DNA of 34,516 nucleotides from Deltaproteobacteria bacterium (GTDB taxonomy: Bacteria; Myxococcota; JACRCW01; JAFGSX01): positions 1-34,516 of the forward strand of contig JAFGSX010000590.1 of assembly GCA_016934455.1 (NCBI GenBank), in the 5' to 3' direction. The translations under genes were made by a program, and so were the position numbers. Shown here piece by piece: positions 888-29,127 of the stretch (position 1 is its first letter; each line of letters opens with the position of its first letter). The notes beneath the pieces are model-generated. The model was given only the letters and a program-made list of their open reading frames with translations, made no database searches and was not told where the DNA came from.

Positions 888-2042
888 TCAATGCGCGCCG
901 CTGCCCGCGGCGGCTCCGGCCGCGCCAGGCGCGCGCAGCGTCGGCAGCTCGTGTCTCCGGGCGGCGGCCATCTCGTCGAGCTGGGCGCGAATGGCGACCC
1001 ACTCGGCGATCGGCACCGCGACGAAGGCGCTGGCCACGACCGGATCGAACTGGCTGCCCGAACAGCGGTTCACCTCGGCGATGGCCACCTCTGGCTCGCG
1101 GCCCTCGCGGTAGGGCCGGTCGCTGGTGATGGCGTCGTAGGTATCGACCACGGCGAAGATGCGCGCTCCGATCACGATCTGATCGCCGCGCAGCCCCTGC
1201 GGGTAGCCTTTGCCGTCAAAGCGCTCGTGGTGGTGCAGCACGACCAGCGCCGCGCCGTGCAGGAATTCTACCGGCTGGATCAGGTCGTGCCCGATCTTCG
1301 GGTGCTGCTTCATCTCGGCCCACTCGGCCTCGTCGAGCGCAGCGGGTTTGAGCAGCACCGAATCGCGCACGCCGATCTTGCCGATGTCGTGCAGCAGCGC
1401 GCCCTGCTCGACCACGGTCAGCTCCGGCTCGGTGATCCCGAGCTGCTGCGCCAGCCGCCGCGCGTAGAGAGCCACCCGCCGCGAATGCCACTGGGTCTCG
1501 GTGTCGCGAAAGTCGAGCGCCGAGATCAGCCCGTCGAGCAGGTTGGCAGTGCGCTCGTGCACCAGACGGTCGAGCCGCTCGTTGGTGTGGCGCAGCAGCT
1601 CGTTCTGGCGCTGCACCGCCTGCTGCAGGGCGCGGTTCTCGCGCTGCAGCCGGGCCATCCGCACGCCCTCGGAGACCGCGCTGAACAGCTCGGCCGGCTT
1701 CCAGGGCTTGGCCACCACCCGCTGTACGCCGCCGCGATTGACCGCGTCGCTCACCGTGTCGAAATCGGTGTTGGCGGTGATCAGCAGTCGCGCCGCCTCG
1801 GGCGACGCCTCGGCCACCTTGGCCAGCAGCTCGCTGCCGACCATCTCGGGCATGCGATAGTCGCTGAGCACCACGTCAAACGGCTGCTGCGCGCGCTCGG
1901 CATCGAGCACGAGGTCGAACGCGACGCTCGGTCGGCTGGCGGTGACGACGTCGAAGCCCTGGCGCTCGAGCAGGCGGCCGAGCGCGACCAGGATCACCTC
2001 GTCATCGTCGACCACCAGCACGCGCGCCTGGGACCCGGTCAT
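888..2042 (-). CDS. Response regulator with HD-GYP output domain (predicted c-di-GMP phosphodiesterase)
   Basis: A 384-residue two-domain signalling protein. Residues 6-125 are a receiver domain: acidic pair D12/D13, phospho-acceptor D61 in LSDYRMP, and K112 in AKPW. A coiled helix follows (about 130-165), then an HD-GYP domain from about 165 to 345 with the metal-binding HD in LLHDIGKIG (H218, D219), HHERFDGKGYP at 271-281 and the VVDTYDAIT stretch at 298-306. This family hydrolyses cyclic di-GMP (some members cGAMP). The HHE-GYP motif is complete, so activity is expected. The tail after 360 is Ala-rich and likely disordered. The ATG at 2042 was chosen because GAGGGAG lies just upstream and the receiver domain starts there. 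The partner kinase is not in the window. It is divergent from uvrC and lies upstream of the microcompartment genes. Confidence 0.9.
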   Translation of the reverse strand: MTGSQARVLVVDDDEVILVALGRLLERQGFDVVTASRPSVAFDLVLDAERAQQPFDVVLSDYRMPEMVGSELLAKVAEASPEAARLLITANTDFDTVSDAVNRGGVQRVVAKPWKPAELFSAVSEGVRMARLQRENRALQQAVQRQNELLRHTNERLDRLVHERTANLLDGLISALDFRDTETQWHSRRVALYARRLAQQLGITEPELTVVEQGALLHDIGKIGVRDSVLLKPAALDEAEWAEMKQHPKIGHDLIQPVEFLHGAALVVLHHHERFDGKGYPQGLRGDQIVIGARIFAVVDTYDAITSDRPYREGREPEVAIAEVNRCSGSQFDPVVASAFVAVPIAEWVAIRAQLDEMAAARRHELPTLRAPGAAGAAAGSGAH

Positions 2043-2061
2043 CGCTCCCTCTCGTCGGCCT

Positions 2062-2096
2062 GCGCCGATCGTCAAAATATGACGCGAAATCGGCGC
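2062..2096. promoter_or_regulatory. Nested inverted repeat in the leader of the HD-GYP gene
   Basis: The outer arms GCGCCGAT (2062-2069) and ATCGGCGC (2089-2096) are perfect complements. The inner arms CGTCA (2070-2074) and TGACG (2080-2084) are also perfect, around the loop AAATA. Only four bases (2085-2088) are unpaired, so the whole forms a 13-bp dyad with one bulge. It lies 20-54 bases upstream of the HD-GYP start codon, in the region shared with divergent uvrC. It could be an operator for a dimeric repressor or a stem-loop in the mRNA leader. No follow-on T-run is present, so it is not a simple terminator. Confidence 0.5.
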
Positions 2097-2125
2097 CAGA
2101 TCCATCTTTTCCAAAACGCCGGCGC

Positions 2126-2153
2126 TTGCCGCGAAGCGCCGGACCGCTATGCT
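2126..2153 (+). promoter_or_regulatory. Putative sigma70 promoter of uvrC (leaderless start)
   Basis: TTGCCG at 2126-2131, a 16-base spacer, and TATGCT at 2148-2153. Transcription would be expected to begin about 6-7 bases downstream, at or next to the GTG start codon at 2160. uvrC has no recognisable Shine-Dalgarno sequence, which fits a leaderless mRNA. Prediction from sequence only. Confidence 0.4.
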
Positions 2154-2159
2154 GATGGC

Positions 2160-4109
2160 GTGGATCGCGGGCCGACACTCCCCGGCAGCGCGCTCGATCG
2201 GCTGGCCGACAAGCTGGCCCATTTGCCGGCCGAGCCCGGCGTCTACCTGATGCGCGACGCCCGCGGCGCGATCTTCTACGTCGGCAAGGCCGGCAACCTG
2301 CGCCAGCGCGTGCGCTCCTATTTTCACCACGGCGGCGACGAGCGCGCCTTTGTCCAGCTCCTCGACCAGATGCTGGCCGATATCGAGATCGCGGTGGTCT
2401 CCAGCGAGCACGAGGCGCTGCTGCTCGAAAACCAGTTGATCAAACAGCACCGGCCGCGCTTCAACGTGCGGCTGCGCGACGACAAGAACTACCTGAGCCT
2501 GCGCCTCGACGACACCGGCTACGCCGCGGCCGACCGCGGCCAGGCCGTCAAACGGCACCGGCTCTTCCCGCGGCTCGAGGTGACGCGGCGGCGGCAGCGC
2601 GATGGCGCCCGTTACTTCGGTCCCTACACCTCGGCGCTGGCGGTGCGCGAGACGCTGCGCCTGGTCAACCACCACTTCGGCCTGCGCACCTGCAGCGATC
2701 GCACGCTGCTCCACCGGAAGCGGCCCTGCATCATGCACCAGATGGGGCGCTGCAGCGCCCCCTGCTGCCGCAGCGTGGCGGTCGACGAATATCGGGCGCG
2801 AATCGCGGACGTGGTGCTGTTGCTCGGCGGTCGCCAGGTCGAGCTGTGCGCGCTGCTGCGCCAGCGCATGCAGCAGGCGAGCGCGGCGCAGGCCTACGAG
2901 GCGGCGGCGCGGCTGCGCGATCAGGTGCGCGCGGTCGAGAAGGTGATGCAGGCTCAACCGACGCCATCCGGCAAGCTGGTCGACCGCGACCTGATCGGCT
3001 ACGCCCGCAGCGGACCGCTGCTGTGCGCGGTGCTGGTGCCGCAGCGCAACGGCCTGCTCGGCGCGCCGCGGCTGCACCGCTTTGACGATCTGGTCGCGCC
3101 CGACGACGAGGTCCTCTCCAGCCTGCTGGTGCAGCTCTACCAGGCCGCGGCGGATACCGAGCTGCCGGACCAGGTGCTGCTGCCCCTGGCGCTGCCGGAC
3201 GCGGCCGGGCTGGCGCACTGGTTGAGCGGTCGGCGGCGGCGCCGCCGGGTGTCGGTGCGGGCACCGCGGCGCGGGCCGGCGCACCGCTTGCTCGAGGTGG
3301 CGCAGCGCAACGCGCAAAACGCGCTGGCCGAGGCGCAGCGCTCCCGCGAGACCCGACAGCAGGAGAGCCAGCGGCTGCAGCGGCTGCTGCGCCTGGAGCA
3401 GCCGCCGCGCTGCATCGAGTGCTTCGACGTGTCGACGCTGCAGGGGCAGGCCGCGGTCGCCTCCAAGGTCCGCTTTGTCGACGGCGCCGCCGAGCGATCC
3501 GGCTACCGCCGCTATCTGATCAAGAACGTGGTCGGCCAGGACGACTTCGCCATGCTGTACGAGGTGCTGACCCGCCGGCTGCGGCGCGGCCTGCGGGAGG
3601 GCGACCTGCCCGACCTGCTGCTGGTGGACGGCGGGCCGGGTCAGTTGGCCGTCGCCGCCGCGGCCTGCCGCGACCTCGGCGTGCGCGGGCTGCCGATCGC
3701 CGGCATCGCCAAGAGCCGGGTCATCGATGACGGCGCCTACCGCGGCGAGGCGCCGGTGCGCTCGCCCGAGCGGCTCTACCTGGCCGGCCGCAAGAACCCG
3801 ATCGCGCTGCTGCCCCACAGCGCCGAGCGCGCGCTGATCGAGCGCATCCGCGACGAGGCGCACCGCTTTGCCATCGCGTTCCATCGTCAGCGCCGGAACC
3901 GGCGCTCGCTGCACAGCGCGCTGGCCGAGATCCCCGGCGTCGGCCCGCGGCTGAGCCGCCGCCTGCTGCGCCAGTTCGGCAGCGTGCGCGCGCTGCGGCA
4001 GGCCGACGTCGCTCGGCTCCAGCAGGTCGGCGGCGTCTCGGCGCGGCTGGCGCAGACCATCCTCTGCCACCTGGCCGCGGACGCGCCCCTTGCTGCCCGG
4101 CCGGGCTGA
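2160..4109 (+). CDS. uvrC: UvrABC excinuclease subunit C
   Basis: A 649-residue UvrC, normal length. It makes the two incisions on either side of a lesion in the UvrB-DNA complex. In order: GIY-YIG nuclease domain (GVY at 27-29, then FYVGKAGNLRQRVRSYF), a linker with four cysteines in the pattern RTC...RPC...GRC..PC that in E. coli UvrC binds a 4Fe-4S cluster, a UVR helix pair (around AQAYEAAARLRDQ) that contacts UvrB, the RNase H-like endonuclease domain with the acidic residues in IECFDVST and LLVDGGPGQL and the His in RDEAHRFAI, and a C-terminal tandem helix-hairpin-helix (IPGVGPRLSRRLL). The GTG at 2160 is the first codon that gives the family N-terminus; no better start lies nearby. A LexA-type box was not seen in front of it. 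The central part carries unusual Arg-rich runs (about 355-365). Confidence 0.96.
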   Translation: MDRGPTLPGSALDRLADKLAHLPAEPGVYLMRDARGAIFYVGKAGNLRQRVRSYFHHGGDERAFVQLLDQMLADIEIAVVSSEHEALLLENQLIKQHRPRFNVRLRDDKNYLSLRLDDTGYAAADRGQAVKRHRLFPRLEVTRRRQRDGARYFGPYTSALAVRETLRLVNHHFGLRTCSDRTLLHRKRPCIMHQMGRCSAPCCRSVAVDEYRARIADVVLLLGGRQVELCALLRQRMQQASAAQAYEAAARLRDQVRAVEKVMQAQPTPSGKLVDRDLIGYARSGPLLCAVLVPQRNGLLGAPRLHRFDDLVAPDDEVLSSLLVQLYQAAADTELPDQVLLPLALPDAAGLAHWLSGRRRRRRVSVRAPRRGPAHRLLEVAQRNAQNALAEAQRSRETRQQESQRLQRLLRLEQPPRCIECFDVSTLQGQAAVASKVRFVDGAAERSGYRRYLIKNVVGQDDFAMLYEVLTRRLRRGLREGDLPDLLLVDGGPGQLAVAAAACRDLGVRGLPIAGIAKSRVIDDGAYRGEAPVRSPERLYLAGRKNPIALLPHSAERALIERIRDEAHRFAIAFHRQRRNRRSLHSALAEIPGVGPRLSRRLLRQFGSVRALRQADVARLQQVGGVSARLAQTILCHLAADAPLAARPG

Positions 4110-25342: not shown

Positions 25343-25368
25343 AAAAAAACGGCCGGCGCATTCCGGCC
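25343..25368 (-). terminator. Rho-independent terminator of the methyltransferase operon
   Basis: On the minus strand GGCCGG (25368-25363), loop AATGCG, CCGGCC (25356-25351), then G and seven T (25349-25343). It begins directly after the stop codon of the homocysteine methyltransferase gene. The strongest terminator in the window. Confidence 0.9.
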
Positions 25369-26265
25369 TCAGACGCGTCGGGCCCGGCGGTCGACCGCCG
25401 CGCGGATGGCGGCGATGTGCGCGGGCGTGGTGCCGCAGCAGCCGCCGACGATCTGGACGCCGGCGTCGAGCAGCGCCGCCACCTGGCCGGCCATGAACTC
25501 CGGCGTCTCTGGGTAGACCGCCGCGCCGCCCTGCAGCAGCGGCAACCCGGCGTTGGCCTGGATCAGCAGCGGCCGGGCGGTGGCCGCGCGCATGGCGCGC
25601 GCGATCTCGACCATGCGCTCGACGCCGTTGCCGCAGTTTGATCCCACCGCGTCGGCGCCCGCAGCGAGCAGTCCGGCCGCGGCCTGCGCCGGCGTCGTCC
25701 CCATGATCGTGAAAAAGCCTCGCGGCGTGTGGTCGAAGGTCATGCTCGCCAGCACCGGGGTCGCCGGCGCGAGCGCCTTGGCCGCGCGCACCGCGAGCTG
25801 CGCCTCGGCCAGGTCGGTCATGGTCTCGATGCAGAACAGGTCGACCCCGGCGTGCGCCAGCGCGCGGAGCTGGCGCTCGAAGCTCGCGCCCACCTGGTCC
25901 GGTGTGGCATCGCCGTACGGCTGCAGCAGCCGGCCCGACGGCCCGATCGACGCCGAGACATAGGCGCGATCGCCGACCGCGCGCCGCACCGCGGCCACCG
26001 CGGCGGCGTTGATCTCCTCGGCGCGATCGTCCAGGCCGTACTGCGCCAGCTTGAGCGGCGAGCCGCCAAAGGTGTTGGTCTGCACGATCTCGGCCCCGGC
26101 CTCGAGGTAGAGCCGGGCGATCGCCTCGAGCGCGGCCGGGTGGTCGAGGTTGAAGCGCTCGGGGCAGGCGCCCGGCTGCAGGCCGCGCTCCATCAACATC
26201 GTCCCCAGCGCGCCGTCGGAGACGACGACCTCGCCCGCGGCCAGGCGCTCGAGCAGCGGCCGCAT
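25369..26265 (-). CDS. Zinc-dependent homocysteine S-methyltransferase (MetH N-terminal module type)
   Basis: A 298-residue protein of the Hcy-methyltransferase family (the first module of MetH, and BHMT). It has the opening VSDGALGTMLMERGL, the NTFGGSPLKL segment, and the three zinc ligands: C211 in GSNCGNG and C276/C277 in VGGCCGTTP. Homocysteine binds zinc and accepts the methyl group, giving methionine. The protein contains no folate, cobalamin or activation domain, so it needs a partner; the upstream gene encodes a corrinoid protein that could donate the methyl. The ATG at 26265 overlaps that gene's stop by one base (TGATG). It is the last gene before the terminator at 25343-25368. Confidence 0.88.
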   Translation of the reverse strand: MRPLLERLAAGEVVVSDGALGTMLMERGLQPGACPERFNLDHPAALEAIARLYLEAGAEIVQTNTFGGSPLKLAQYGLDDRAEEINAAAVAAVRRAVGDRAYVSASIGPSGRLLQPYGDATPDQVGASFERQLRALAHAGVDLFCIETMTDLAEAQLAVRAAKALAPATPVLASMTFDHTPRGFFTIMGTTPAQAAAGLLAAGADAVGSNCGNGVERMVEIARAMRAATARPLLIQANAGLPLLQGGAAVYPETPEFMAGQVAALLDAGVQIVGGCCGTTPAHIAAIRAAVDRRARRV

Positions 26266-26903
26266 CACGCGGTCCCGAGGTAGCGCTTGACCACGTCCAC
26301 CGCGTTGACGCCGTCGAAGCAGTAGGCGTCGGCTCCGATCTCGCGCGCGTACTCGGCCGACAGCGGCGCCCCCCCGACGATGAGCTTGACCTTGCCGTAC
26401 AGGCCGCGCTCCCGGCACAGATCGACCACCTGCCTCATCACGGGCATCGTCGTCGTCAGCAGCGCCGACATGCCGATCACCTGCGCGCCGTGTTCCTGCG
26501 CCGCGGCCACGAACCTCTCGGGCGCCACGTCCTTGCCCAGGTCGATCACCTCCAGGCCGGCGCCCCGGAGCATGATCGCCACCAGGTTCTTTCCGATGTC
26601 GTGCAGGTCGCCCCGCACGGTGCCGATCACCACCCTGCCGCCGGTCGCGACGCCGGCCTTTGCCAGCAGCGGCCGGAGCAGATCGAGCCCGGCGTACATC
26701 GCCTTGGCCGCCAGCAGAACGTCCGGCAGGAATATCTCGTGCGCCTTGAACCGGTCTCCGACAACGGTCATGCCGGCGATCAGGCCCTGGTCGAGGATCG
26801 GCTTGGGAGCGAGGCCAGCAGCGAGCGCCTGTCGGGTGAGCTCCGCCACTTGGTCGGCGTCGCCGCCCTGCAAACTCTCGGACAACCGTGTGAGCAGATC
26901 CAT
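26265..26903 (-). CDS. Methyltransferase corrinoid protein (MtaC/MttC/MtbC family)
   Basis: A 212-residue cobalamin-binding protein. A four-helix cap domain (about 1-85, with FLPDVLLAAKAM) precedes the Rossmann B12 domain, in which D99-L100-H101-D102-I103-G104 is the DxHxxG motif; H101 is the lower cobalt ligand. SALLTTTM and VGGAPLS close the cofactor site. Such proteins carry a methyl group on cobalt between two methyltransferases, here by inference from the MttB-like protein to homocysteine. The ATG has AAGGAG upstream. It lies 20 bases after the activation-domain gene and overlaps the homocysteine methyltransferase gene by one base. Confidence 0.92.
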   Translation of the reverse strand: MDLLTRLSESLQGGDADQVAELTRQALAAGLAPKPILDQGLIAGMTVVGDRFKAHEIFLPDVLLAAKAMYAGLDLLRPLLAKAGVATGGRVVIGTVRGDLHDIGKNLVAIMLRGAGLEVIDLGKDVAPERFVAAAQEHGAQVIGMSALLTTTMPVMRQVVDLCRERGLYGKVKLIVGGAPLSAEYAREIGADAYCFDGVNAVDVVKRYLGTA

Positions 26904-26923
26904 TGGATACTCCTTGCGGCCGG

Positions 26924-27670
26924 TCAGTCCAGACCACTTTCAGCCACCAGGCTGTTGATCCGGTCGACGCAGGTGCGCGCCTGGCACCCGCGGCAGCACT
27001 CGAACTCCGGATCGAACATGAAGATCTCCTTGTCGCCCGCCACCAGCACGCCGCTAACCGACTTGAGCGGCTGCATCAGGAAGCTCGAGTTGAGCGCGAT
27101 GCCGATCTCGGCCGGACGCAGCCGGGCGAACAGCGGCTGCTGCGCTGTCACCTCCCAGCCGCAGTAGCCGGGGCTGAACTCCATGATGCCGGTGGTCGGC
27201 TGCAGGCGACCGGTGGCCAGCAGGTGTTCGCGCCACCGCGCCTTGATCGCCTGCGCCGCCAGCTCGGCGCCGTGCGACGCCGCGGTGTCGAGCATGCTGG
27301 CGAGGGCAAAATCGTCGGCATCGAAGAGGCGGCCGATCAGCTCGCTCACCGGCTCGCCCACGGTCACCGCGTACAGCGCCAGAGCGCCGGCGTCGGGGTA
27401 GATTTGGCGCAGCGGGCTGTCCCCGATTTCCCCCGGCCGCAGCAGCGGCTCGAACGCGTCCGCGGTGAGCTCGTCGAACAGGCCGCGCGGCACCGCCTGC
27501 TCGCAGTAGAGCGAGATCGCCTGCAGCGCGAGCTGACGCGCGCGCTCGCGGCGCGGGGCGTCGTCCGGGCTCCTCGATCGTCCGCCGCCGCCGGGGACGC
27601 CCTGCGCCTGCAGCACCTGCTCGACCTGGGGCGCCGTGTCGTCGGAGGCGATGTCGAAAAGGGCGCGCAT
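26924..27670 (-). CDS. Free-standing MetH-type activation (cobalamin reactivation) domain protein with C-terminal Cys cluster
   Basis: A 248-residue protein. The second half matches the AdoMet-binding activation domain of cobalamin-dependent methionine synthase: SPGYCGWEVTAQQPLF at 167-182 and IGIALNSSFLMQPLKSVSG at 189-207. In MetH this domain reduces and re-methylates cobalt that has been oxidised to Co(II). Here it stands alone, as in anaerobic corrinoid systems, and ends in a cluster C225, C226, C229, C234, which could hold an iron-sulphur centre or metal to deliver electrons. The first 45 residues are poorly ordered. The ATG overlaps the MttB-like stop by one base (TGATG). It would keep the downstream corrinoid protein active. 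Confidence 0.82.
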   Translation of the reverse strand: MRALFDIASDDTAPQVEQVLQAQGVPGGGGRSRSPDDAPRRERARQLALQAISLYCEQAVPRGLFDELTADAFEPLLRPGEIGDSPLRQIYPDAGALALYAVTVGEPVSELIGRLFDADDFALASMLDTAASHGAELAAQAIKARWREHLLATGRLQPTTGIMEFSPGYCGWEVTAQQPLFARLRPAEIGIALNSSFLMQPLKSVSGVLVAGDKEIFMFDPEFECCRGCQARTCVDRINSLVAESGLD

Positions 27671-29127
27671 CAGATGCTGACCGGCAGCCGATCGATCCCG
27701 GCCCGAAGCGCCGCCGCATTCATCAGCCGGGTGAGCTGCTGCTTGACGCCGCTGTCCAGCCGCACCGGCCGGTGGGCCGCGACCAGCCGCTCCACCTCGG
27801 CGCGGGCGCGCTCGCCCAGCGTCTTGCCGCCCTCCTCGGCCCAGCGCGACTTGTTGGCGCGGTCGATCACCGGCCCCGGCAGGTAGTGCTCCTGGCGCAG
27901 GTGGCGCCTCGTGTGCGCGGAGATCAACAGGTGGCCCTCGGCCAGCATCTCCTCGAACCGGGCGCGCGCCGGGAAATCCTCCTTGGGCGTGATGCCCCGC
28001 AGCAGGTGCAGCGCGCTGCCGCAGATCTCGTTGTCGAGCACCAGCTTCTCGAGCGAAAAGCAGCTCTCGAAGTCGAGCATGCCCGATCCCGAGCAGTTGT
28101 TGATGCCGGACAGCGCCGCCAGCAGGGCGCCGGCCGCGCTCTCGAAGCCGGCCTGGGCGTCGAGCAGCTTGGCGTCGCTGAGCCCGATGTAGGCCTGCGT
28201 CGGCAGGCCGAGGGATTTTCCGATCTCGTTGTAGGCGCAGTCGATCATCATGGTGCCGATGTCGCCCATCGGTGTGGTCTCGTAGCGCACGTCGAACACC
28301 GCCGGCGAGCCGCCGTACAGCACCGGCGTGCCCGGCCTGGTGAGCTGCGAGATGGCGACGCCCGACAGCGTCTCGGCCGTGTGCTGGATCAGCGAGCCGA
28401 CCATGGTGACCGGCGCCATGAACCCGGACAGCGGCATCGAGATGTACTCGACCGGGATCCCGAAGCGCGCGCAGTCGACCACGTTCTGCGAGGTCACGTC
28501 GCTCCACTTGATGGGCGCGGTCGGGCAGCAGGAGAAGATCGTCAGCGGCCTGGCCGCCAGCGCCTCGGCGCTGCCGCGCACTGCCAGTTGCAGATCCTTC
28601 ATCAGCTCGAACGCCTCGACGGTGAAGCAGCCGGTGACGACCGGCTTCTCGCAAAAACCCAGGCTCAGGTAGAGGCGGTAGCTGTCCTGGATCTTCTCCG
28701 GCACGTCCTGCGGGATGAAGGCCGTGGACTGCGACGCGAGGTTCGGCAGCCCGCACATCAGCTTGGCGTACCTGACGTAATCCGCGGCCGCCGGCCGCCG
28801 CGACCGATCGGCGCCGTGGTCGAGGATGGTGATGGCGGCCGAGCCCGGCGTGTAGTTGGTGCGGTCACCGGAGAGATCGACCGCCTCCTGGCCGAGGCTG
28901 TCGTACAGCTTGAAGCCGTGCGGCGCGCTCTCGAGCGAGCGATCGATGATGTCGGGCGTGAAAAAGGCGCGCTGCGCGGCGGCGTCGATGCGGGCGCCGT
29001 GTCCGTGCAGCAACTCGAGCACGCCCGGGTTGTGGATCTCGACGCCCAGCGTGCACAGCAGGTCGCGCGCCTCGGCGACGATCCTCTCGATCAGCTCCTC
29101 GCTCAACAGGTGGACGGTCGGTCTCAC
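27670..29127 (-). CDS. MttB-family (trimethylamine/quaternary amine) corrinoid methyltransferase, non-pyrrolysine type
   Basis: A 485-residue TIM-barrel protein of the trimethylamine methyltransferase family. Family marks include the N-terminal LLCTLGVEIHNP, VTGCFTVEAFELMKDL, SCCPTAPIKW, PLSGFMAPVTMVGSLIQHTAETLSG and GGSPAVFDVRYETTPMGD. The frame is open throughout with no TAG at the pyrrolysine position, so it belongs with MtgB-type members that act on glycine betaine and other quaternary amines; the real substrate is unknown. It should methylate the corrinoid protein encoded two genes on. The GTG at 29127 has GAGGGG upstream; another GTG lies two codons earlier. It is the first gene of the operon and diverges from the nucleotidase operon. 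Confidence 0.88.
   Translation of the reverse strand: MRPTVHLLSEELIERIVAEARDLLCTLGVEIHNPGVLELLHGHGARIDAAAQRAFFTPDIIDRSLESAPHGFKLYDSLGQEAVDLSGDRTNYTPGSAAITILDHGADRSRRPAAADYVRYAKLMCGLPNLASQSTAFIPQDVPEKIQDSYRLYLSLGFCEKPVVTGCFTVEAFELMKDLQLAVRGSAEALAARPLTIFSCCPTAPIKWSDVTSQNVVDCARFGIPVEYISMPLSGFMAPVTMVGSLIQHTAETLSGVAISQLTRPGTPVLYGGSPAVFDVRYETTPMGDIGTMMIDCAYNEIGKSLGLPTQAYIGLSDAKLLDAQAGFESAAGALLAALSGINNCSGSGMLDFESCFSLEKLVLDNEICGSALHLLRGITPKEDFPARARFEEMLAEGHLLISAHTRRHLRQEHYLPGPVIDRANKSRWAEEGGKTLGERARAEVERLVAAHRPVRLDSGVKQQLTRLMNAAALRAGIDRLPVSI

What the first reader, a model, noticed from the sequence alone, without database searches (positions are those of the whole stretch)
25369..29127. Dismantled methionine synthase with an MttB-type methyl-donor module
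Seen: four same-strand genes, three of the joints being one-base TGATG overlaps or a 20-base gap, closed by a strong terminator. They encode an MttB-like methyltransferase, a lone MetH activation domain, a corrinoid protein and a zinc homocysteine methyltransferase. Known: MetH joins homocysteine, folate, B12 and activation modules in one chain; MttB/MtgB proteins move methyl from (quaternary) amines to corrinoid proteins. Inferred: here the folate module is replaced by MttB, giving a folate-independent methionine route from a quaternary amine or similar donor. Related split or folate-independent methionine synthases are known, but this exact set may be new.
Basis: partly seen in the sequence, partly recalled or inferred. 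Interest (0 to 1): 0.72.

Follow-up and report, generated by a model that had tools for sequence, protein, structure and literature searches.

The report
Folate-free four-gene methionine synthase cassette
Four adjacent genes, found in the same order in bacteria of about a dozen phyla, most likely make the amino acid methionine with a methyl group from an unidentified small methylated compound instead of from folate, and in some bacteria they appear to be the only way left to make it.

Summary
The four genes are real and correctly placed: MttB-family methyltransferase (27670-29127), stand-alone MetH-type reactivation protein (26924-27670), MtgC-like corrinoid protein (26265-26903) and zinc homocysteine methyltransferase (25369-26265). 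It is not a local oddity. A genome scan found 80 related loci; 42 carry all four genes together, 40 in this order, across about 12 phylum-level groups, with no shared neighbours. Of the cassette genomes tested, 13 lack MetH, MetE/Mes-type synthases and MTHFR together (11 strictly), including three single-contig chromosomes. In 12 of the 13 the cassette gene is the only homocysteine methyltransferase found (the 13th also has a fragment). This strongly supports a folate-independent methionine synthase. The window's own assembly keeps a full MetH and an HMT-MTHFR fusion, so here the cassette is auxiliary. And all five glycine-betaine contacts proposed for DhMtgB are replaced by conserved different residues, so the donor is probably not glycine betaine bound that way and remains unknown. 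The closest known system, Ruegeria MtgBCDE (2025), has a folate module and RamA/DUF1638 reactivation; the cassette has neither, with a MetH-type reactivase instead. No activity has been shown.

The parts
27670..29127 (-). MttB-superfamily methyltransferase, non-pyrrolysine, 485 aa, GTG start (donor-side enzyme)
   Evidence: Pfam MTTB 243 bits; TIGR02369 321 bits, below its 525 cut-off; AF2 model pLDDT 90.3, TM 0.87-0.92 to MttB/MtgB structures; Leu316 at the pyrrolysine position
26924..27670 (-). Stand-alone MetH-type reactivation protein, 248 aa, with SPGYCGW and C-terminal Cys-x2-Cys-x4-Cys
   Evidence: Pfam Met_synt_B12 29.7 bits; AF2 pLDDT 93.9; top PDB match TM0269; C170, C226, C229, C234 invariant in 53 sequences
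26904..26923 (-). 20-base intergenic gap with AAGGAG ribosome-binding site before the corrinoid gene
   Evidence: sequence
26265..26903 (-). Corrinoid (cobamide-binding) protein, MtgC-like, 212 aa, GDLHDIGKN motif
   Evidence: Pfam B12-binding and B12-binding_2; best NCBIfam MtgC 223 bits, below cut-off 370; H101 invariant
25369..26265 (-). Zinc homocysteine S-methyltransferase, 298 aa, no folate domain
   Evidence: Pfam S-methyl_trans 235 bits; PDB best T. maritima MetH; Cys211, Cys276, Cys277 invariant
25351..25368 (-). Putative intrinsic terminator: 6-GC-pair stem followed by a run of T
   Evidence: not enriched over shuffles; sequence

Best explanation
The operon encodes a split, folate-free, corrinoid-dependent methionine synthase. 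The MttB-family enzyme takes a methyl group from a small methylated donor (most likely a quaternary ammonium or related onium compound, but probably not glycine betaine bound as in DhMtgB) and passes it to the cob(I)amide of the corrinoid protein. The zinc homocysteine methyltransferase then moves it to homocysteine, making methionine. The stand-alone MetH-type activation protein rescues oxidised corrinoid by reductive methylation with S-adenosylmethionine; its four invariant cysteines may hold a redox centre. In some genomes this seems to be the only methionine synthase; in the window's genome it is a second route beside MetH. Shown: gene set, folds, conserved zinc, corrinoid and activation motifs, conserved order, joint absence of folate-route genes elsewhere. 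Inferred: all catalytic steps. Unknown: the donor.
For: 80 related loci; 40 with mttB-act-cor-hmt in this order and 2 with act first, with no widely recurrent neighbours, so the four genes form the unit. Pairwise distances of the four proteins correlate (r 0.54-0.66; permutation maxima 0.20-0.32). Of 15 cassette genomes with neither MetH nor a PF01717 synthase, 13 lack MTHFR, against 2 of 25 with one of them (Fisher p 8e-7; relatedness not corrected). Among them are three single-contig chromosomes, G200, G202, G230, with no pterin-binding protein over the cut-off except folP, so no MetH folate domain or AcsE. In 12 of the 13 the cassette hmt is the only S-methyl_trans match; G221 has one extra 110-aa fragment. 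In G230 act-cor-hmt form a trio with mttB elsewhere. Zinc cysteines, corrinoid histidine and the activation-motif PGYC core are (nearly) invariant. No separate folate-transfer module in the window's assembly.
Against: Full-length MetH and an HMT-MTHFR fusion are present in the window's own assembly. No biochemical data exist. The donor is unidentified and no transporter or demethylation gene is conserved next to the cassette. Most of the genomes lacking folate-route genes are Zixibacteria, so the events are not independent, and several are incomplete. Canonical PF01053 homocysteine-forming enzymes are clear only in G198, G200, G205, G209 and G214; G202 and G230 show only weak hits, so their homocysteine source is unknown. 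No SAM, SAH, folate or cobalamin riboswitch was found in 38 cassette loci.
Confidence: 0.72

Rival explanations
1. It is a glycine-betaine system of the MtgBCDE kind (Ruegeria): MttB demethylates glycine betaine, the corrinoid protein carries the methyl, and both folate and homocysteine can accept it.
For: Same module types; published precedent (PMC12478193); MtgC is the nearest named corrinoid family.
Against: All five residues proposed to contact glycine betaine in DhMtgB (Y94, N199, R309, H345, F353; docking-based, PMC6855144) are replaced by S, C, Q, S, E, conserved in 64-71 of 71 relatives. No mtgD in the operon or elsewhere in the assembly; none in several cassette genomes. The reactivase in the cassette is of MetH type, not RamA/DUF1638.
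Confidence: 0.12
2. It is a catabolic methyl-transfer system that mainly feeds methyl groups to folate or C1 oxidation; the homocysteine methyltransferase is a side outlet.
For: Characterised MttB-superfamily systems in acetogens feed THF (PMC8604678, PMC12155760). Some Planctomycetota with a close MttB relative carry a Wood-Ljungdahl-type cluster with an AcsE-like pterin protein.
Against: Cassette genomes such as G200, G202 and G230 have no pterin methyltransferase and no MTHFR, so methyl-THF could be neither made nor oxidised by known enzymes. hmt is inside the cassette.
Confidence: 0.08
3. The homocysteine methyltransferase acts alone like BHMT, taking a methyl directly from a betaine or sulfonium; mttB, act and cor serve another reaction.
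For: Phaeobacter Bmt, the homocysteine module of a split MetH, uses betaine and DMSP directly in vitro (PMC12366255). NCBIfam PRK07534 betaine-homocysteine methyltransferase scores 207 bits, below its 338 cut-off.
Against: hmt is tightly linked to cor and act, even where mttB is elsewhere; the nearest structure is the MetH homocysteine domain, ahead of BHMT.
Confidence: 0.07
4. In the window's genome the cassette is a recently acquired or redundant set with little role, or the contig is mis-binned. (This concerns the role in this one host and is not exclusive of the best explanation.)
For: MttB found in 1 of 195 genomes of the phylum; MetH and MTHFR fusion present; MAG is 82% complete, 4.8% contaminated.
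Against: GC (0.707 vs 0.686), GC3 and tetranucleotide profile of the cassette match the rest of the contig (r 0.92), which matches the MetH contig (r 0.90); frames intact and all motifs kept.
Confidence: 0.15

Closest known systems
Ruegeria/Phaeobacter MtgBCDE split methionine synthase and glycine-betaine methyltransferase (PMC12478193; PMC5764234)
   Same: Separate MttB-family, corrinoid and homocysteine-methyltransferase proteins; methionine made through a free corrinoid protein; published link between MttB enzymes and methionine synthesis.
   Different: There methionine synthesis requires the folate protein MtgD, reactivation is attributed to RamA/DUF1638 with no PF02965, and mtgE usually lies apart. 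Here no folate protein, PF02965-type reactivase, all four genes adjacent, and a different MttB pocket.
Cobalamin-dependent methionine synthase MetH
   Same: Homocysteine, corrinoid and activation modules
   Different: Separate proteins; folate module absent, an MttB-family protein in the operon instead
Core (folate-independent) methionine synthases MesA-D (PMC7857596; PMC7005905)
   Same: Methionine without methyl-folate; MesA-C thought to take methyl from corrinoid proteins
   Different: Mes proteins are MetE relatives; here the enzyme is an S-methyl_trans (MetH/BHMT-type) protein with its own adjacent corrinoid, donor enzyme and reactivase
MttB superfamily (MttB, MtgB, MtpB, MtcB, MtyB, MthB)
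   Same: Sequence family, fold, partnership with a corrinoid protein
   Different: Leu at the pyrrolysine position; glycine-betaine contact residues replaced; acceptor inferred to be homocysteine rather than THF or CoM
TM0269-type stand-alone MetH activation protein
   Same: Fold, SPGY motif, separate from MetH
   Different: Invariant C-terminal CxxCxxxxC and SPGYC cysteines; linked to an MttB/MtgC-like pair

Membership tests
MttB superfamily (PF06253/COG5598) | Full-length PF06253 match above cut-off and MttB fold | tested here: met
   243 bits vs 25; TM 0.87-0.92 to 7xcl, 9yce, 4yyc
Pyrrolysine trimethylamine methyltransferase MttB | In-frame amber codon/Pyl at the active site and TIGR02369 cut-off | tested here: not met
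   Leu316 at that position, L or M in all 71 relatives; 321 bits vs cut-off 525
Glycine betaine methyltransferase MtgB | Proposed glycine-betaine contacts Y94, N199, R309, H345, F353 | tested here: not met
   Replaced by S96, C201, Q311, S346, E354, conserved in 64-71 of 71 relatives; the contacts are docking-based
MtgBCDE dual methionine/betaine system | Separate corrinoid MtgC-type and homocysteine MtgE-type proteins | tested here: met
MtgBCDE dual methionine/betaine system | Folate-binding MtgD | tested here: not met
   Own assembly: only folP-type and MetH pterin domains; assembly 82% complete; absent in several other cassette genomes
MtgBCDE dual methionine/betaine system | RamA plus DUF1638 reactivation | tested here: inconclusive
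   Not in the cassette, which has a PF02965 protein instead; the rest of the genome was not searched for them
MetH (full enzyme) | Folate-binding (PF00809) module with the other modules | tested here: not met
   No pterin module in the cassette; true MetH lies on another contig
MetH-type activation (reactivation) protein | Activation-domain fold and AdoMet-site PGY motif | tested here: met
   Fold; PGYCGW (nearly) invariant. AdoMet binding itself was not tested
Zn homocysteine methyltransferase (PF02574) | Three zinc-ligand cysteines | tested here: met
   C211, C276, C277 invariant in 44 sequences
Core methionine synthases MesA-D | MetE C-terminal-type (PF01717) enzyme | tested here: not met
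   hmt is PF02574
Folate-independent methionine synthase (functional class) | Methionine formed from homocysteine without methyl-folate | not testable with these tools
   Supported indirectly by joint absence of MetH, MetE and MTHFR

The most novel reading that the evidence does not exclude
A widespread, undescribed folate-independent methionine synthase: a four-gene cassette in about a dozen phyla in which a new MttB subfamily draws methyl from an unidentified donor through a corrinoid protein to homocysteine, with a possibly metal-cluster-bearing MetH-type reactivase, letting some bacteria do without MetH, MetE and MTHFR altogether and so without methyl-folate.
Probability: 0.55. Interest if true: 0.78.

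Novelty: new variant of a known kind. Interest (0 to 1): 0.63.

Why it matters
Methionine supplies S-adenosylmethionine, and its methyl normally comes from one-carbon metabolism on folate. A cassette that replaces MetH or MetE and also methylene-folate reductase would make methionine, and all SAM-dependent methylation, depend on a scavenged or still unknown methyl donor. It would fill the apparent methionine-synthesis gap in several uncultured lineages, give a function to a branch of the large, mostly uncharacterised MttB superfamily, and pose a testable question: what is the donor? It would also show reactivation by a stand-alone MetH-type protein in an MttB-linked corrinoid system.

Tried and rejected
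(1) First translations of the window genes were out of frame and were redone. (2) A dedicated folate methyltransferase in the window's assembly: none found. (3) Conserved neighbour genes naming the donor: none; only scattered cases such as a CBS-domain protein, amino-acid permease, proline racemase. (4) Riboswitches near the cassette: none in the window or in 38 loci; the Rfam PYLIS_3 matches lie inside mttB coding sequence at the pyrrolysine region and are read as coding similarity, since the residue there is Leu or Met. (5) Glycine betaine as donor: tested on residues and disfavoured. (6) Same cassette within the window's own phylum: MttB in none of the other 194 genomes; stand-alone activation relatives there (L035-L037) have no MttB, corrinoid or HcyMT gene beside them. 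(7) Literature for the exact gene set: eight searches returned no description; the library holds open-licence papers only.

Full report
WHAT IS THERE. Window 25369-29127, minus strand, holds four intact genes in the order mttB (27670-29127, GTG start), act (26924-27670), cor (26265-26903), hmt (25369-26265). mttB/act and cor/hmt share one base in TGATG; act and cor are 20 bases apart with an AAGGAG before cor. A GC stem with T7 follows hmt (25368-25351), though shuffled sequence gives about as many such sites. Neighbours are ordinary: a TPR/thioredoxin-like protein, a GATase1-like membrane-type protein and a 5'-nucleotidase-type metallophosphatase.

IDENTITY. mttB: Pfam MTTB 243 bits, full length; TIGR02369 321 bits, below its cut-off; model pLDDT 90.3 matching MttB (7xcl) and MtgB (9yce, 2qne) with TM about 0.9. 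act: weak Pfam match (29.7 bits, cut-off 25), but its model (pLDDT 93.9) matches TM0269 and otherwise, at significant E-values, only MetH activation-domain structures. cor: B12-binding plus cap; MtgC is the nearest named family, below its cut-off. hmt: S-methyl_trans 235 bits, nearest solved structure the T. maritima MetH homocysteine domain, well ahead of BHMT. Zinc cysteines C211/C276/C277 and corrinoid histidine H101 are invariant among cassette relatives.

A CONSERVED CASSETTE. A scan of 84,980 species genomes with this MttB gave 80 loci at about 46-74% identity. In 40 the order is mttB-act-cor-hmt (one with hmt in two pieces) and in 2 act precedes mttB; many of the rest are cut by contig ends. 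Record titles place the four-gene loci in Zixibacteria, Planctomycetota, Gemmatimonadota, Bacteroidota/Ignavibacteria/Chlorobi, Eisenbacteria, Stahlbacteria, Cloacimonadota, Electryonea, Hatepunaea, Acidobacteriota, Actinomycetota and Armatimonadota. Beyond these four genes no gene family recurs in more than 10 of the 80 loci. Distances of the four proteins correlate across 38 loci (r 0.54-0.66; permutation maxima 0.20-0.32), as for genes inherited or transferred together. A Chloroflexi group has mttB-cor-hmt without act beside it.

JOINT ABSENCE OF THE FOLATE ROUTE. Host genomes were searched for MetH activation domain, pterin-binding domain, MetE/Mes (PF01717), MTHFR and homocysteine methyltransferase. 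Fifteen cassette genomes have neither MetH nor a PF01717 synthase; 13 of these also lack MTHFR (G195, G197, G198, G200, G202, G203, G207, G209, G221, G226, G230, G239, G241). Leaving out G207 and G209, which carry short ambiguous pterin-binding fragments, gives 11. Of 25 with MetH or PF01717 only 2 lack MTHFR (Fisher p 8e-7; most of the 13 are Zixibacteria, so they are not independent). Three of the 13 are single-contig chromosomes (CP070756, CP070674, CP070777). In 12 of the 13 the cassette hmt is the only PF02574 match in the genome; G221 has one additional 110-aa fragment. In CP070777 act-cor-hmt form a trio (L124:7303-9624) with mttB about 0.4 Mb away. The three chromosomes also have no AcsE-type pterin protein, so no known enzyme route to methyl-folate remains.

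THE WINDOW'S OWN GENOME. The assembly (82% complete, 4.8% contaminated) has a full-length MetH on contig C236 (counted from its MDFRDRLRQG start it is 1136 aa), an HMT-MTHFR fusion on C212, a single MttB and no separate pterin methyltransferase. MttB is absent from 194 other genomes of the phylum, while cassette composition matches the contig: an old lateral acquisition is the simplest reading. Here it is a second route, not the only one. The phylum looks like Myxococcota from genome sizes; that is my inference, not a tool result.

DONOR. A docking study proposed Y94, N199, R309, H345 and F353 of DhMtgB as glycine-betaine contacts (PMC6855144). In the cassette family these are S, C, Q, S and E, conserved in 64 to 71 of 71 relatives. 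Leu (or Met) occupies the pyrrolysine position. Known non-pyrrolysine MttB enzymes act on quaternary amines, with an acidic group thought to aid binding (PMC12155760). So the donor is probably an onium compound other than glycine betaine bound in that way, but this is inference.

REACTIVATION. act has SPGYCGW, the counterpart of the MetH AdoMet-site motif, and four invariant cysteines (C170, C226, C229, C234). Reductive methylation with SAM as in MetH is the likely job; a metal cluster is possible. Separate PF02965 proteins are known in other bacteria (PMC5764234).

COMPARISON. The nearest published system is Ruegeria MtgBCDE (PMC12478193), where MtgC and the folate protein MtgD are both required for methionine synthesis and glycine-betaine use, reactivation is attributed to RamA and DUF1638, and mtgE usually lies apart. 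The present cassette omits MtgD, uses a MetH-type reactivase and keeps all four genes adjacent. MesA-D (PMC7857596) are folate-independent but MetE-related. Hence: new variant of a known kind.

LIMITS. No enzyme activity is shown; many genomes are incomplete MAGs; p-values ignore relatedness; homocysteine supply is clear in G200 but not in G202 or G230; RamA was not searched genome-wide; the literature library is open-access only.

Noticed in passing
L125 (G237:C1:3736000-3753000), L126, L127: Phycisphaerales-type genomes with a close MttB relative but no act/cor/hmt beside it carry a Wood-Ljungdahl-type cluster (AcsE-like pterin protein with proteins that look like CoFeSP subunits, CooC and an activator) and no MetH or MetE; what their MttB and methionine synthase are is unclear.
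   Followed up: partly
L114, L117, L120-L122: Chloroflexi loci with mttB-cor-hmt and no activation gene beside it; their MttB has His instead of Gln at position 311 but the same S96, C201 and E354.
   Followed up: partly
L035:3173-4093, L036:7286-8038, L037:7975-8670: Stand-alone activation-domain relatives in the window's phylum with the same SPGYC motif and C-terminal cysteines, not linked to MttB, corrinoid or HcyMT genes; partner unknown.
   Followed up: no
L045:10948-11045, L073:1383-1482 and similar: Rfam PYLIS_3 (pyrrolysine insertion element) scores above threshold inside non-pyrrolysine mttB genes: likely coding similarity, a possible false-annotation trap.
   Followed up: partly
G240:C1:2075259-2077220 and G237:C1:2305013-2306836: A single open frame of 828-859 aa matches MTHFR and, further along, a pterin-binding domain weakly: an unusual fusion.
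   Followed up: no
window 891-4109 (+): 1072-aa open frame with UvrC domains from residue 449 on and about 440 upstream residues without any Pfam match; may be an over-long start or an N-terminal extension.
   Followed up: no
L115:14138-14599, L083:5155-5574, L109:4428-4847: A CBS-domain protein family follows hmt closely in three distant loci (by ATGA overlap in L115); possible regulator.
   Followed up: partly
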